A DNA stretch of 64,000 bases from Candidatus Gastranaerophilales bacterium (GTDB taxonomy: Bacteria > Cyanobacteriota > Vampirovibrionia > Gastranaerophilales > Gastranaerophilaceae), in contig CALURI010000003.1 in the NCBI GenBank assembly GCA_944323135.1, forward strand, positions 62,001-126,000, read 5' to 3'. This document shows, one piece after another, positions 51,868 through 56,908 of the stretch; the stretch's first letter is position 1; every line of letters begins with the position of its first letter. The notes below the pieces were generated by a model. That model was not told the DNA's origin, did not search any database, and saw nothing but the letters and a program-made list of their open reading frames with translations. A program made the position numbers and the translations under genes.

Positions 51868-53274
51868 ATGGCAAATAAATTCATTGAATTTTTTAAGGAG
51901 CCTCCGGCTAAAGAAGTTATTACGGATAAAGAAAAAGTTGATAAAATGTATTCTCATTTCAGATGGAGAATATTTTATTCAAGTTTTATCGCGTATGTTG
52001 TGTTTCACTTATGCAGAAAAAATATTGCGGTGGCTTTGCCTTCAATGGGGGCAGCTTTACATTTGTCAAATACTGAATTGGGACTTTTAGGTTCTTCTTT
52101 ATATGTAACTTATGGTATAGGTAAATTTGTAAATGGTGTACTTGCTGATAAGTCAAATGTAAGAACTTTTTTACCTACGGCATTAATATTATCAGCAATA
52201 TGTAATTTGTGCTTTGTATTAAGTGCAACAATTATAACTCCGGGACATGTCAGCTTTTTCGGCTTGCCTTCTGCTACTATTCTTCTTTGGATTATGGCAT
52301 TTTTCTGGGGAGCTAACGGTTGGTTTCAGTCTTGCGGATTTCCTCCTGTTGCAAAAAGTTTATCATATTGGTTTTCAAATTCTGAAAGAGGTACGAAATG
52401 GTCTTTGTGGTCAACTTCTCACCAGATTGGCGTATTTTCGGCAGTAATGATTTCAGGCTTTGTTATTGATAAATTTGGATGGAAGGCTGCTTTTTATATT
52501 CCTGCAATTATTTGTATAATTACAGGTTTATGGTTGTTTGACAGACTGAGAGATAAACCTCAATCTTTGGGACTTCCTGATGTTGAAAAGTATAAAAATG
52601 AACCTGTAAAATGTCAAAAAGACGATGATGATAAGGATGAAAGATCTTATTTTCAAATATTCAAGGAGCATATTTTATGCAACCCTGTGATTTGGATGTT
52701 AGCTATTGCTTATATTTTTGTTTATATTATAAGATTCGGAACGGAAGATTGGCTTGTTAAATATTTAGTTGAAGTTAAAGGTAATACTCTTACTCTTGCA
52801 AGTTCTAAATTGAGTTCTCTTGCACTTGTTGGTGCATTTGGAGCAATTTTGGCAGGCGTTATTTCGGATAAAATATATAAAGGAAACAGAACTCCTATTA
52901 ATATTGTATTTTTAATTTGCTTAATATTCAGTTTGTTGGCTTTTGCGGCAAACCCTGCATCAAATAATATTATGGATTATGTTTACGCTGCAATGATTGG
53001 GATGTTTACAGCTGGACCTCAGATGTTAATCGGCGGATTATGTGCAGTGGAAAGCAGCTCTAAAAAAGTAGCTTCGGCATCTATCGGTTTTACCGGAGTA
53101 TTCGGATATGTCGGTGCGGCTTTATCTTCAAGCGGAACAGGAGTTGTTGTAGATAAATTTGGATGGAACGGAGCTATTATATTTTGGATGATTTCTACAA
53201 TGATTTGTGTTGTTATATGCTCGATTTTATTGATTTATGAAAAATTGAAGAAAAGAGCAGTTGCACAAAATTAG
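51868..53274 (+). CDS. MFS organophosphate antiporter (GlpT/UhpT-like)
   Basis: A 468-residue, 12-helix transporter. The start (RWRIFYSSFIAYVVFHLCRKN, about residues 32-52) has the family Arg/Tyr pattern, with SSLYVTYGIGKFVNGVLADKSN and WGANGWFQSCGFPPVAKSLSYWF typical of organophosphate:phosphate antiporters such as GlpT, UhpT and PgtP. The likely cargo is a phosphorylated C3 or C6 compound. It follows the exonuclease gene by 2 nt with AGGAAAG, and its stop overlaps that of the converging kinase gene by 4 nt. Confidence 0.9.
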   Translation: MANKFIEFFKEPPAKEVITDKEKVDKMYSHFRWRIFYSSFIAYVVFHLCRKNIAVALPSMGAALHLSNTELGLLGSSLYVTYGIGKFVNGVLADKSNVRTFLPTALILSAICNLCFVLSATIITPGHVSFFGLPSATILLWIMAFFWGANGWFQSCGFPPVAKSLSYWFSNSERGTKWSLWSTSHQIGVFSAVMISGFVIDKFGWKAAFYIPAIICIITGLWLFDRLRDKPQSLGLPDVEKYKNEPVKCQKDDDDKDERSYFQIFKEHILCNPVIWMLAIAYIFVYIIRFGTEDWLVKYLVEVKGNTLTLASSKLSSLALVGAFGAILAGVISDKIYKGNRTPINIVFLICLIFSLLAFAANPASNNIMDYVYAAMIGMFTAGPQMLIGGLCAVESSSKKVASASIGFTGVFGYVGAALSSSGTGVVVDKFGWNGAIIFWMISTMICVVICSILLIYEKLKKRAVAQN

Positions 53275-54452
53275 TTTTTAGCTGTTTTCGTTGTTGATTT
53301 TTTTGTATTTATCGGAATTGTAAACCAAAATGTACTTCCTTGGTGTAGTTTTGATTTTACATAAATTTCACCGCCATGAGCTTGAAGTATTTTTCGGCAT
53401 AGAGCAAGACCTACACCTGAACCTTGTTGGCGTTTAAGTTCACTGCGATTTACCTGTGTAAAAAAGTTGAAAATTTTTGTGATATCTTTTTTGCTTATTC
53501 CGTCGCCTTTATCTCTAATCTCAAAAACGAATTCTTTTTTTCTGTTTACATAAGTTACAATTGCGATGGAACTGTTTTCCTTGCTGAATTTTAAAGCATT
53601 AGATACCAAATTATAAATTAATTGTTTAAACCTTATCAAATCAACATTAATAATAATATCTGAAAGAGTGTAATTAAATGTAATCTTTTTTTCTTTACGC
53701 ATTTCATCAAAATTTTGAAGAATCTCTGTAATCAGTTGTTTTGTCCTTATTCGTTCACGTTTTATAGTTAACGGCTGAGAATCGCTTCGTGCATATTCTA
53801 AAATATTTTTTATCAGACTCATTAAGTAAACGGAATTATTTGAAATATTATTTAAGTATTTAATATTTTCATCATCATTAATTTTTTCTGATAATAAATC
53901 ACAAAATCCTATAATGGCATTAAGAGGGGTCTTAAATTCGTGAGATACGCTTGCAAGAAATTCAGTTCTTTCTCTTGCGGTTCTTCTTTTTTCATCGTAA
54001 AGGGTTATGATTTCAAGCCTTGCACTAATATATTCTGTTAAAATTTCAACAGCATTAATGTTATTTTTATTAAAATTCTTGTCTGCAGAAATTAGTCCGA
54101 TGTAGCCTAAAATATTGTTTCTGTAAATAATTGGTTTTAGAATTCTATTGGTATTTGACATATATGAAAGATGTTCATAAATTTCTTCGAGCCCAAAATT
54201 ATTATAAAAATCAGTTATTGTTTGTCTTATATTTTTTACTTCTTTTTCTAATGATTTATCTTGTTTAAAACGTTCAGTGGTTGTAAGTTTTTTCACTTCT
54301 ACCTGATTATTATTCCAATTTATAAGGCTTACCCAGCTTGCATAAGCACCTGTAAGCTGTATAAATTCTGTATTTATTATATCTGCCATGTCTTTTAAAG
54401 TTTTTGCAGTATTAATTTTTTTTGTAAAATTATAAATTGCTTTCTTGTTCAT
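53271..54452 (-). CDS. Soluble sensor histidine kinase (GAF-HisKA-HATPase)
   Basis: A 393-residue kinase without transmembrane helices. The N-terminal 150 residues look like a GAF domain (EFIQLTGAYASWVSLINW...). HisKA has the phospho-acceptor His in VSHEFKTPLNAIIGF (about residue 172), and the ATPase has the N box LVSNALKFS, the G1 box RDKGDGISKKD and G2 box GSGVGLALCRKIL. No response regulator lies nearby, so it is an orphan in this window. It is divergent from gmk with only 14 nt between the start codons. Confidence 0.92.
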   Translation of the reverse strand: MNKKAIYNFTKKINTAKTLKDMADIINTEFIQLTGAYASWVSLINWNNNQVEVKKLTTTERFKQDKSLEKEVKNIRQTITDFYNNFGLEEIYEHLSYMSNTNRILKPIIYRNNILGYIGLISADKNFNKNNINAVEILTEYISARLEIITLYDEKRRTARERTEFLASVSHEFKTPLNAIIGFCDLLSEKINDDENIKYLNNISNNSVYLMSLIKNILEYARSDSQPLTIKRERIRTKQLITEILQNFDEMRKEKKITFNYTLSDIIINVDLIRFKQLIYNLVSNALKFSKENSSIAIVTYVNRKKEFVFEIRDKGDGISKKDITKIFNFFTQVNRSELKRQQGSGVGLALCRKILQAHGGEIYVKSKLHQGSTFWFTIPINTKKSTTKTAKN

Positions 54453-54454
54453 TG

Positions 54455-54464
54455 TATAATTATA
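54455..54464. promoter_or_regulatory. Palindromic double -10 box between gmk and the kinase gene
   Basis: TATAATTATA reads as TATAAT on each strand (54455-54460 for gmk, 54464-54459 for the kinase), the two boxes sharing 2 bp. Each box ends exactly 6 nt before its ATG. On the kinase side a TTACAT lies 18 nt upstream, inside gmk. Both transcripts would be leaderless, and both promoters cannot be occupied at once. Confidence 0.7.
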
Positions 54465-54466
54465 CT

Positions 54467-55030
54467 ATGAATAAAAAATTATATGTAATATCAGGTTCAT
54501 CAGGTGTCGGTAAAGGTACTGTTTTAAAAGGTTTTTTATCAAGAAATCCTGAGTTTATGCTTTCTATATCCTGTACAACAAGAAAGCCCAGAGAAGGTGA
54601 AATTGACGGTGTTAATTATTTCTTTTTGACAAAAGAAGATTTTAAAAACTGCATTGATAATAATAAATTTCTTGAATGGGCTGAATTTGCCGGTAATTTT
54701 TACGGAACAAAGAAAAAATTTATTAATCAATGTTTGGAAGAAGGCAAAGATATTATTTTAGAGATTGATACGCAAGGGGCGTTACAGGTAAAAAAACAGA
54801 TGCCAGAAGCTGTTTTGATTTTTATATGCCCGCCGTCTTTTGAAACTTTGGAAAATCGTTTGCGCGGACGTCACACTGAAGATGAAGCGACTATACAAAA
54901 AAGGCTTCATGCAGTGAAAGAGGAACTTGCCCGTGCTGAAAAATTTGATTATAAAGTCGTTAATGATGATTTAGATAGGGCAATTTCGGAAATTGAAAGA
55001 ATTATTGCCGGAGAACGTAAGAAATGTTAA
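54467..55030 (+). CDS. gmk: Guanylate kinase
   Basis: It converts GMP to GDP. The P-loop is SGSSGVGKGT (about residues 9-18), followed by the GMP-binding CTTRKPREGEIDGVNYFF and EWAEFAGNFYGT, with the lid RGRHTEDEATIQKRL. The length of 187 aa is normal. The ATG at 54467 is used; an in-frame TTG at 54437 lies inside the divergent kinase gene. It leads the operon gmk-coaBC-NIF3. As in other bacteria, an rpoZ gene might have been expected between gmk and coaBC, but they overlap by 7 nt. Confidence 0.96.
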   Translation: MNKKLYVISGSSGVGKGTVLKGFLSRNPEFMLSISCTTRKPREGEIDGVNYFFLTKEDFKNCIDNNKFLEWAEFAGNFYGTKKKFINQCLEEGKDIILEIDTQGALQVKKQMPEAVLIFICPPSFETLENRLRGRHTEDEATIQKRLHAVKEELARAEKFDYKVVNDDLDRAISEIERIIAGERKKC

Positions 55031-56217
55031 GCGGGAAAACAGTACTTATAGGAATAACAGGCGGAATTGCGGCTTACAAGATTTGTGAGCTCATCAGAAT
55101 GTATAAAAGAGCTAATGCAAATGTTCTTGTTATATGTACGCCTAATGCTTTAAATTTTGTAACTAAACTTACGCTGCAAAATTTGAGCGGGAATGAAGTT
55201 GCTGTTGAAGAATTTGATGTGAGAGATTATAAACCCGAGCATATTTCTTATGCGGATAGTGCTGATATTATGGTAATTGCACCTGCAACTGTCAATACTA
55301 TTTCAAAAATAGCGCAAGGGATTTGTGATAATCTTTTAACATCTGTTGCTTGTGCTTTTACAAAGCCTGTTATTATTGCACCTGCGATGAATTGTAATAT
55401 GTGGGAAAATCCGATATTTCAAGAAAATTTGAAAAAACTTCATTACGAAATTTTAGAACCTGACAGCGGTTATCTTGCTTGCGGTTATGATGGTAAGGGC
55501 AGACTTTGTTCGCTTGAAAAAATATTTGATAAAACAGTTGAGCTTTTAACATATAAACCTTTAGCAGGTAAAAAAATTGTTATAACTTCCGGCGGAACAA
55601 TAGAAGATATTGATCCTGTAAGATATATTTCAAATTATTCATCAGGGAAAATGGGACTTGCACTTGCTGATAGTGCCAAAAATTTGGGCGCAGATGTAAC
55701 TTTGATTACAACAAAAGATGTATCAAGAAAATATAATGTGATAAAAGTTAAATCAGCTTTAGATATGAAAGAGGGTGTTGAAAAGGAATTTGAAAATTCT
55801 GATTGTATTATAATGGCTGCGGCTGTTGCGGATTATAGAGTTAAAGAAGTTGCTTCTCGGAAAATGAAAAAAACTGATGCTGATGAAATTACCTTAACTC
55901 TTGTAAAAAATCCTGATATTTTAAAAGAGTTGTGTGAGAAAAAATTAAAATTAAATGCTTCTGATAATAAAGCTGCAATTCCTTTGTTAGTCGGTTTTTG
56001 CGCTGAAAGTGAAAATTTACTTAATAATGCAAAAGAAAAAATTGAGAAAAAAGGTTGTGATTTCTTAATTGCAAATGATATTTCAAGAAAAGATATTGGT
56101 TTTTCAAGTGATTATAACGAAGTTACAATTTTGGATAAAAAAGGTAACATGCAAAAACTTGAAAAAGCAGATAAAATGACAATTGCAAGACAAATTTTTA
56201 AGGTTATTTATGGATAA
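55024..56217 (+). CDS. coaBC: Bifunctional phosphopantothenoylcysteine decarboxylase/synthetase
   Basis: A two-domain enzyme of coenzyme A synthesis. The N-terminal CoaC half (about residues 1-180) is a flavoprotein with GITGGIAAYK, PATVNTISKIAQGICDNL, PAMNCNMWENP and the catalytic Cys in ACGYDGKGRL. The C-terminal CoaB half (about residues 185-397) begins ITSGGTIEDIDPVRYISN and has MAAAVADYR and KNPDIL. The length of 397 aa is normal. It overlaps gmk by 7 nt and the NIF3 gene by 8 nt. Confidence 0.96.
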   Translation: MLSGKTVLIGITGGIAAYKICELIRMYKRANANVLVICTPNALNFVTKLTLQNLSGNEVAVEEFDVRDYKPEHISYADSADIMVIAPATVNTISKIAQGICDNLLTSVACAFTKPVIIAPAMNCNMWENPIFQENLKKLHYEILEPDSGYLACGYDGKGRLCSLEKIFDKTVELLTYKPLAGKKIVITSGGTIEDIDPVRYISNYSSGKMGLALADSAKNLGADVTLITTKDVSRKYNVIKVKSALDMKEGVEKEFENSDCIIMAAAVADYRVKEVASRKMKKTDADEITLTLVKNPDILKELCEKKLKLNASDNKAAIPLLVGFCAESENLLNNAKEKIEKKGCDFLIANDISRKDIGFSSDYNEVTILDKKGNMQKLEKADKMTIARQIFKVIYG

Positions 56218-56908
56218 ATATGAGATTGTCAAAAGGATAGAAAATTATGCACCGCCAGAACTTGCAGAAAATTGGGATTGTTCAGGCTGGGTTGTTGAAA
56301 CAGGTAAAAAAGATATTCAAAAAATTATGCTTGCTTTAACTGTTACTGATGATGTTGTCAGACAGGCTGACAAAAATAATTGTGATATGATAATTTCTCA
56401 TCATCCTTTATTTTTTGTTCCATTAAAATATAAAAATGCGGATATTTATTGTGCACATACAAACATGGACGGAACTGAAGGCGGTACTACGGATAGATTG
56501 ATAGATATTTTGGGTTTTAAGAAATCGGTTAATATCGGCAATTTTACAAGGCTTGTAAGCTTGAAAGAAGCTATTTCTGTAAAAGATTTTGCTGAAATTT
56601 TAAGGGGAATTTCTCCGCATCTTAGATATGTGAATAATTCAGGTGTAAATGAGATAAAAAATATAGCGTTTTGTGCAGGCAGCGGTTCTGAATTTATTCA
56701 GGAAGCTTTTGAAAACGGAGCAGATGCTTTTGTTACTGGAGATTTAAAATTTCATACCGCGCTTGATTCTCCGATTGTAATTTTTGATATCGGACATTTT
56801 GAAAGTGAAATAATGATTTTAGATGTATTTGAAAATTTGTTGTCTGATATTAAAGTATTAAGAGCACAGGAAAAATCTCCTTTTATTTATGTGAATAATT
56901 TTTCATAA
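56210..56908 (+). CDS. NIF3-like dinuclear metal protein
   Basis: A 232-residue protein of the NIF3/DUF34 family (sometimes annotated GTP cyclohydrolase I type 2). It has ENWDCSGW near the start, the metal ligands in ISHHPLFF and AHTNMD (about residues 56-84), and DIGHFESE near the C-terminus (usual family pattern GHxxSE). The role is uncertain across the family. The ATG at 56210 overlaps the coaBC stop by 8 nt; a start at 56183 would lie deeper in coaBC and is less likely. Confidence 0.9.
   Translation: MDKYEIVKRIENYAPPELAENWDCSGWVVETGKKDIQKIMLALTVTDDVVRQADKNNCDMIISHHPLFFVPLKYKNADIYCAHTNMDGTEGGTTDRLIDILGFKKSVNIGNFTRLVSLKEAISVKDFAEILRGISPHLRYVNNSGVNEIKNIAFCAGSGSEFIQEAFENGADAFVTGDLKFHTALDSPIVIFDIGHFESEIMILDVFENLLSDIKVLRAQEKSPFIYVNNFS

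What the first reader, a model, noticed from the sequence alone, without database searches (positions are those of the whole stretch)
54453..54466. 14-bp divergent promoter: palindromic overlapping -10 boxes between gmk and a histidine kinase gene
The two start codons are separated by only 14 bp, and the centre TATAATTATA is a TATAAT on both strands sharing 2 bp, each ending 6 nt before its ATG. RNA polymerase cannot bind both ways at once, so a nucleotide/CoA synthesis operon and an orphan sensor kinase would compete for one DNA site, with each -35 region inside the other gene. This is a very compact form of mutually exclusive promoter.
Basis: partly seen in the sequence, partly recalled or inferred. 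Interest (0 to 1): 0.7.

Follow-up and report, generated by a model that had tools for sequence, protein, structure and literature searches.

The report
Shared promoter for two leaderless genes
In a gut bacterium related to cyanobacteria, two genes facing away from each other are separated by only 14 DNA letters, whose palindromic centre very probably starts both transcripts right at their start codons, and related species keep that centre symmetric only while both genes are there.

Summary
In detail: cat-TGTATAATTATACT-ATG lies between an orphan histidine kinase (HK) gene and gmk-coaBC. Both TATAAT boxes end exactly 6 nt before their ATG. Genome-wide, TATAAT-like boxes peak sharply at this distance (94 genes against about 25) and 92 of those 94 genes lack a Shine-Dalgarno motif.

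Of 90 distinct gmk loci from Gastranaerophilales genomes, 40 have the HK divergent to gmk. The gap is 14 bp in 37 of these, and the intergenic DNA is far better conserved than nearby third codon positions. Where the HK is lost or moved, gmk keeps its TATAAT (45 of 50) but the opposite half is gone (0 of 45, against 38 of 40 when adjacent), over at least six independent changes.

This is a bidirectional promoter (Warman/Grainger type) driving two leaderless genes, with a predicted start separation of 15 bp rather than the 18 bp usual in E. coli. At least two further gene pairs share the 14-bp arrangement. RNA polymerase exclusion follows from geometry; real competition is unproven, and E. coli work found little at basal activity. 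Transcription starts have not been mapped.

The parts
54453..54466 (.). 14-bp intergenic region TGTATAATTATACT, the whole space between two divergent start codons
   Evidence: Mean identity to consensus 0.96 over 37 loci, against 0.59-0.66 at third codon positions of the flanking genes.
54455..54460 (+). TATAAT, predicted -10 box of gmk, at -12 to -7 from the gmk ATG
   Evidence: TATAAT lies 6-7 nt before ATG in 45 of 50 loci lacking the adjacent HK.
54459..54464 (-). TATAAT, predicted -10 box of the histidine kinase gene, overlapping the gmk box by 2 bp
   Evidence: Present when the HK is divergent to gmk, absent when it is not. HK genes that have moved keep a TATAAT-like box just upstream of their own ATG.
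54467..54467 (+). Predicted +1 of gmk mRNA (A of ATG), leaderless; inferred, not mapped
   Evidence: The -10 box ends 6 nt before it. Genome-wide peak at that distance; 92 of 94 such genes have no SD.
54452..54452 (-). Predicted +1 of HK mRNA (A of ATG), leaderless; inferred, not mapped. 15 bp from the gmk +1
   Evidence: Same reasoning.
54467..55030 (+). gmk, guanylate kinase (187 aa)
   Evidence: TIGR03263 E 1e-73; PF00625.
53271..54452 (-). Orphan sensor histidine kinase (393 aa): weak GAF-like N-terminus, HisKA, HATPase_c; no response regulator nearby
55024..56217 (+). coaBC, overlapping the gmk end by 7 bp, so probably co-transcribed
   Evidence: TIGR00521 E 6e-123; ORF coordinates.
56210..56908 (+). 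DUF34/NIF3 family gene, likely next in the operon
   Evidence: PF01784; ORF.

Best explanation
The 14 bp are a minimal bidirectional promoter. Its decamer TATAATTATA holds a perfect -10 box on each strand, overlapping by 2 bp. The housekeeping sigma factor can recognise it in either orientation, and transcription starts on the A of either ATG, so both mRNAs (gmk-coaBC-NIF3 one way, the histidine kinase the other) have no 5' leader and no Shine-Dalgarno. Only one polymerase can occupy the site at a time, because the two melted regions overlap. The -35 contribution is weak, and T-rich positions around -15 to -18 probably help. Shown by sequence: the geometry, the genome-wide leaderless signature, the conservation, and loss of one half when its gene leaves. 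Inferred: sigma recognition, exact starts, leaderless translation, exclusion in vivo. Any regulatory use of the exclusion, such as strong gmk transcription limiting kinase synthesis, is only a hypothesis.
For: Sequence. TATAAT-like boxes at 6 nt before ATG: 94 of 1071 genes against about 25 at other distances; exact TATAAT 42 against about 5. SD motif in 2 of those 94 genes against 509 of 947 other genes. Gap of 14 bp in 37 of 40 loci with divergent HK, across several genera. Intergenic identity 0.96 against 0.59-0.66 at third codon positions. Opposite half kept 38/40 with HK, 0/45 without, same direction in 6 of 6 informative independent pairs, sign test p 0.03. HK genes separated from gmk keep a TATAAT-like box of their own. 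Bidirectional promoters by -10 symmetry are established in bacteria (PMC12825309, PMC10268837).
Against: No transcription data exist for this uncultured organism. The 15-bp start separation is not among the preferred 10, 18 and 23 bp named for E. coli (PMC12825309), although it falls in the 7-25 bp definition (PMC10268837). In an AT-rich genome (31% GC) promoter-like strings are common. Three adjacent loci have gaps of 17 or 19 bp, so 14 bp is not absolutely required.
Confidence: 0.85

Rival explanations
1. The palindrome is an operator for a dimeric transcription factor that regulates one or both genes, and its resemblance to two -10 boxes is incidental.
For: A 12-bp perfect palindrome (GTATAATTATAC) lies exactly over both starts in this genome.
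Against: Only the core that forms the two hexamers is conserved; the outermost symmetric pair is not (position -2 only 0.68). Tolerated changes in the HK half give TATGAT or TACAAT, which keep the key -12T, -11A and -7T. Without HK the half-site alone stays with gmk. The decamer is only mildly frequent genome-wide.
Confidence: 0.05
2. Only the gmk promoter is real. The HK is transcribed from an unseen promoter inside gmk, and the symmetric half is a by-product of AT richness.
For: The gmk half is the more widely conserved one (45 of 50 loci without HK).
Against: The HK half is present in 38 of 40 adjacent loci and 0 of 45 others. The HK has no SD, so an upstream start would give a leadered mRNA with no ribosome site. 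Moved HK genes carry their own box.
Confidence: 0.07
3. Two promoters happen to overlap because genome compaction pushed the genes together; the overlap has no regulatory role and polymerase occupancy is too low for competition. (This concerns consequence, not anatomy, and can be true together with the best explanation.)
For: Basal competition was negligible at five tested E. coli bidirectional promoters (PMC12825309). The HK is repeatedly lost or moved without gmk losing its promoter.
Against: The overlap has been maintained across genera although the genes could drift apart.
Confidence: 0.5

Closest known systems
Bidirectional promoters by -10 element symmetry (Warman et al. 2021, cited in PMC12825309; Middlemiss et al. 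2023, PMC10268837)
   Same: Shared, pseudo-symmetric -10 on opposite strands; predicted starts within the defined 7-25 bp; weak -35; T at -18 on both strands; site between divergent genes.
   Different: Predicted start separation 15 bp (-7T opposite -8A) instead of 18 (-7T opposite -11A), which allows two perfect TATAAT boxes. Both RNAs are predicted leaderless, so the start codons themselves bound the promoter. Starts not mapped.
TA-led leaderless genes of bacteria (Zheng et al. 2011, PMC3160421)
   Same: A Pribnow-like signal about 10 bp upstream of the start codon and no SD.
   Different: Here two such genes are head to head and share one signal. That survey's list of groups with leaderless genes does not include this lineage.
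E. [quoted passage not shown]
   Same: Two mRNAs from one bidirectional promoter, starts 10-23 bp apart.
   Different: No regulator gene or operator is known here; one partner is an orphan kinase and the other an operon for nucleotide and CoA synthesis.

Membership tests
Bidirectional promoter (Warman/Grainger) | -10 elements on opposite strands that overlap or are shared | tested here: met
   conserved in 37 of 40 divergent loci.
Bidirectional promoter (Warman/Grainger) | Divergent mapped starts 7-25 bp apart | not testable with these tools
   Predicted separation is 15 bp; no 5'-end data.
Bidirectional promoter (Warman/Grainger) | Preferred (not obligatory) separation of 18 bp, also 10 or 23 | tested here: not met
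   15 bp by prediction. In the genus the leaderless 18-bp layout is not enriched (69 against control 81), whereas the 15-bp layout is (71 against 13). This is a preference in other bacteria, not a requirement.
Bidirectional promoter (Warman/Grainger) | T at -18 relative to each start | tested here: met
   Position 54449 is T on the + strand; 54470 is A on +, so T on -.
Leaderless gene | -10-like signal about 6 nt before the start codon, without SD | tested here: met
   Both genes; genome-wide class shown.
Leaderless gene | mRNA 5' end at the start codon | not testable with these tools
   Uncultured organism, no RNA data held.
Mutually exclusive promoter switch | Transcription one way measurably reduces the other | not testable with these tools
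   Needs in vitro transcription or reporters.

The most novel reading that the evidence does not exclude
This lineage has a class of minimal head-to-head gene pairs in which a roughly 10-bp palindrome bounded by two start codons is the entire shared control region: no UTRs, no SD, no -35. The 15-bp start geometry would be favoured because each gene's ATG-A supplies the T at -15 and -18 that helps the opposite promoter. Several unrelated gene pairs would have settled on it independently.
Probability: 0.45. Interest if true: 0.62.

Novelty: new variant of a known kind. Interest (0 to 1): 0.5.

Why it matters
If start mapping confirms it, this is about the shortest DNA that can separate two genes while giving each its own promoter, because leaderless transcription removes the need for any other space. 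It offers a natural series (HK present, moved, lost) for measuring whether polymerase competition between opposed -10 boxes matters, an open question for bidirectional promoters. It also suggests that the preferred geometry of bidirectional promoters can differ between lineages.

Tried and rejected
Calling genes across 1.24 Mb of the own genome suggested that every very short divergent gap is exactly 14 bp (ORFs of 100 aa or more). Adding two other species showed gaps of 11, 16, 23 and more, and my simple first-ATG caller even missed the gmk/HK pair in one species, so I dropped 'always 14'. The genus-wide excess of the degenerate 14-bp motif (71 against 13) comes mostly from three conserved families (gmk/HK, a ketoacyl-synthase pair, rarA and its neighbour), by hand count about 50 of 71, so it is not dozens of independent cases. 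The C8:24411 site is not a plain gene pair in this genome: the minus ATG opens only a 5-codon ORF. A first phylogenetic test used a faulty label (last TATAAT instead of the one in register) and was replaced. The layouts for gaps 12, 15, 16, 17 and 22 bp served as contrasts: little or no excess (22 bp: 107 against 80). The 2021 Nature Microbiology paper on bidirectional promoters is not held, so its spacing figures are taken from the two later papers.

Full report
What is there. The sequence at 54450-54469 is CAT-TGTATAATTATACT-ATG. The minus-strand ORF starting at 54452 is a 393-aa histidine kinase with HisKA and HATPase_c domains and a weak GAF-like N-terminus. The plus-strand ORF starting at 54467 is guanylate kinase, followed with overlap by coaBC and then a DUF34/NIF3 gene. 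Eighteen response-regulator hits exist in the genome; the only one on this contig is about 70 kb away, so the kinase is an orphan by position. Related contigs are named Candidatus Gastranaerophilales or Melainabacteria, with two Scatousia, so the source is a gut member of the non-photosynthetic sister group of cyanobacteria.

Meaning of the 6-nt distance. A -10 box spans -12 to -7. With 6 nt between box and ATG, +1 is the A of ATG on both strands, predicting leaderless mRNAs. In 1.24 Mb of the same genome, boxes matching TATAAT in at least 5 of 6 positions lie exactly 6 nt before ATG in 94 of 1071 genes, against about 25 at most other distances; for exact TATAAT the numbers are 42 and about 5. 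SD-like motifs occur in 2 of those 94 genes but in 509 of 947 other genes. The genome therefore mixes SD-led and leaderless genes, as described for other bacteria (Zheng et al. 2011, PMC3160421). The logo of 91 exact cases pooled from three species shows T at -15, -17 and -18, a weak G at -14 and only a faint -35. At the present site the best -35 match at spacers 16-18 is 3 of 6 for each gene.

Conservation and natural experiments. From the 58 related genomes and 80 named contigs I took 90 distinct gmk upstream regions. In 40 the kinase is the divergent neighbour. Reading the sequences, the gap is 14 bp in 37; the exceptions are 19 bp (L219) and 17 bp (L241, L243). In the 37 loci the 14 bp are 0.96 identical to consensus, against 0.59 (HK) and 0.66 (gmk) at third codon positions (some gmk proteins have a short N-terminal extension that lowers the gmk figure). 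Where the kinase is absent or displaced (50 loci), gmk keeps TATAAT 6-7 nt before its ATG in 45. The other five have no box, and in those whose upstream gene was inspected (L027, L028, L034) a same-strand gene abuts gmk, as in an operon. The bases completing the opposite -10 box are present in 38 of 40 adjacent loci and 0 of 45 others. On a gmk tree the kinase label changes at least 13 times (7 on well-supported branches alone), and in the 6 well-supported independent pairs in which the box differs it follows the kinase every time (sign test p 0.03). In L015/L016 and L029 a short ORF stub or only the CAT remains and the kinase half of the palindrome has decayed. In five species where other genes lie between kinase and gmk, or the kinase lies on another contig, the kinase has its own TATAAT-like box just upstream. 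Each half therefore behaves as the promoter of its own gene.

Is 14 bp special? A degenerate pattern for two leaderless boxes with a 14-bp gap is found 71 times in 33 genomes of the genus against 13 for the reversed control (sums by hand). The equivalent patterns for 12, 15, 16 and 17 bp show no clear excess (16/12, 8/9, 7/11, 69/81), and for 22 bp 107/80. The 17-bp case is the 18-bp start separation preferred in E. coli and Salmonella (PMC12825309, PMC10268837). About 50 of the 71 sites belong to three conserved families: gmk/HK; a FabF-like and a Ketoacyl-synt_2 gene pair (C3:53935 here); and rarA with a neighbour that starts at the same site in some species (L055, L081, L083). The strict pattern with TATAATTATA occurs 48 times in 286 genomes of the order against 0 for the control. 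Of 20 loci examined, 11 are gmk/HK, 2 are a serine-recombinase-like gene with an 83-aa ORF, and 7 have a real gene on one side and a tiny ORF on the other. The 14-bp layout thus recurs in a few unrelated pairs, not everywhere. A geometric reason is available: of the overlaps that give gaps of 17 bp or less, only this one lets both boxes be perfect TATAAT, and each gene's ATG followed by A supplies T at -15 and -18 of the opposite promoter. That is inference.

Mechanism and limits. RNA polymerase bound for one gene would melt roughly 54456-54468, and for the other 54451-54463, so simultaneous open complexes are impossible by geometry. Whether this matters is open: five E. coli bidirectional promoters had basal activity too low for competition, and competition appeared only when one direction was activated (PMC12825309).

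Classification. It works like a bidirectional promoter and fits the sequence definition, with predicted starts 15 bp apart (inside the 7-25 bp definition but not at a preferred distance) and two leaderless products. I rate it a new variant of a known kind: well supported by comparative genomics, not by transcription data.

Noticed in passing
L109:13935-13954 (G000:C3:53935-53954): A second conserved 14-bp head-to-head pair in this genome, a FabF-like ketoacyl synthase and a Ketoacyl-synt_2 protein, with the spacer GGTAACATATTATC; found by pattern in about 20 species of the genus, in G026 as a perfect 20-bp palindrome including both start codons.
   Followed up: partly
L100:4411-4430 (G000:C8:24411-24430): Conserved site upstream of rarA/mgsA. 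In some species a 390-409 aa protein starts 14 bp away; in others, including this one, that ATG opens a 5-codon ORF (MVRQK, MISKK, MVSEK) just before the next gene, possibly a leaderless mini-ORF.
   Followed up: partly
L325-L330, position 1501: In genus g22, an ABC-permease-like gene shares the 14-bp TATAATTATA layout with a 9-14 codon ORF (MRERTYAKI and similar) conserved across six species.
   Followed up: no
L321 and L322, position 1501: A serine-recombinase-like gene and an 83-aa ORF are divergent across a perfect 20-bp palindrome CATGCTATAATTATAGCATG in different genera, which suggests a mobile element carrying this promoter.
   Followed up: no
window 51868-53274: MFS transporter of the UhpC/GlpT/PgtP group, convergent with the orphan kinase and overlapping its end by 4 bp; the gene order MFS, kinase, gmk, coaBC is kept in relatives, so transporter and kinase may be functionally linked.
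   Followed up: no
L241 and L243 (gmk upstream): In the most distant adjacent loci three extra bases sit between the two half-sites, so the boxes no longer overlap and each lies 9 nt before its ATG.
   Followed up: partly
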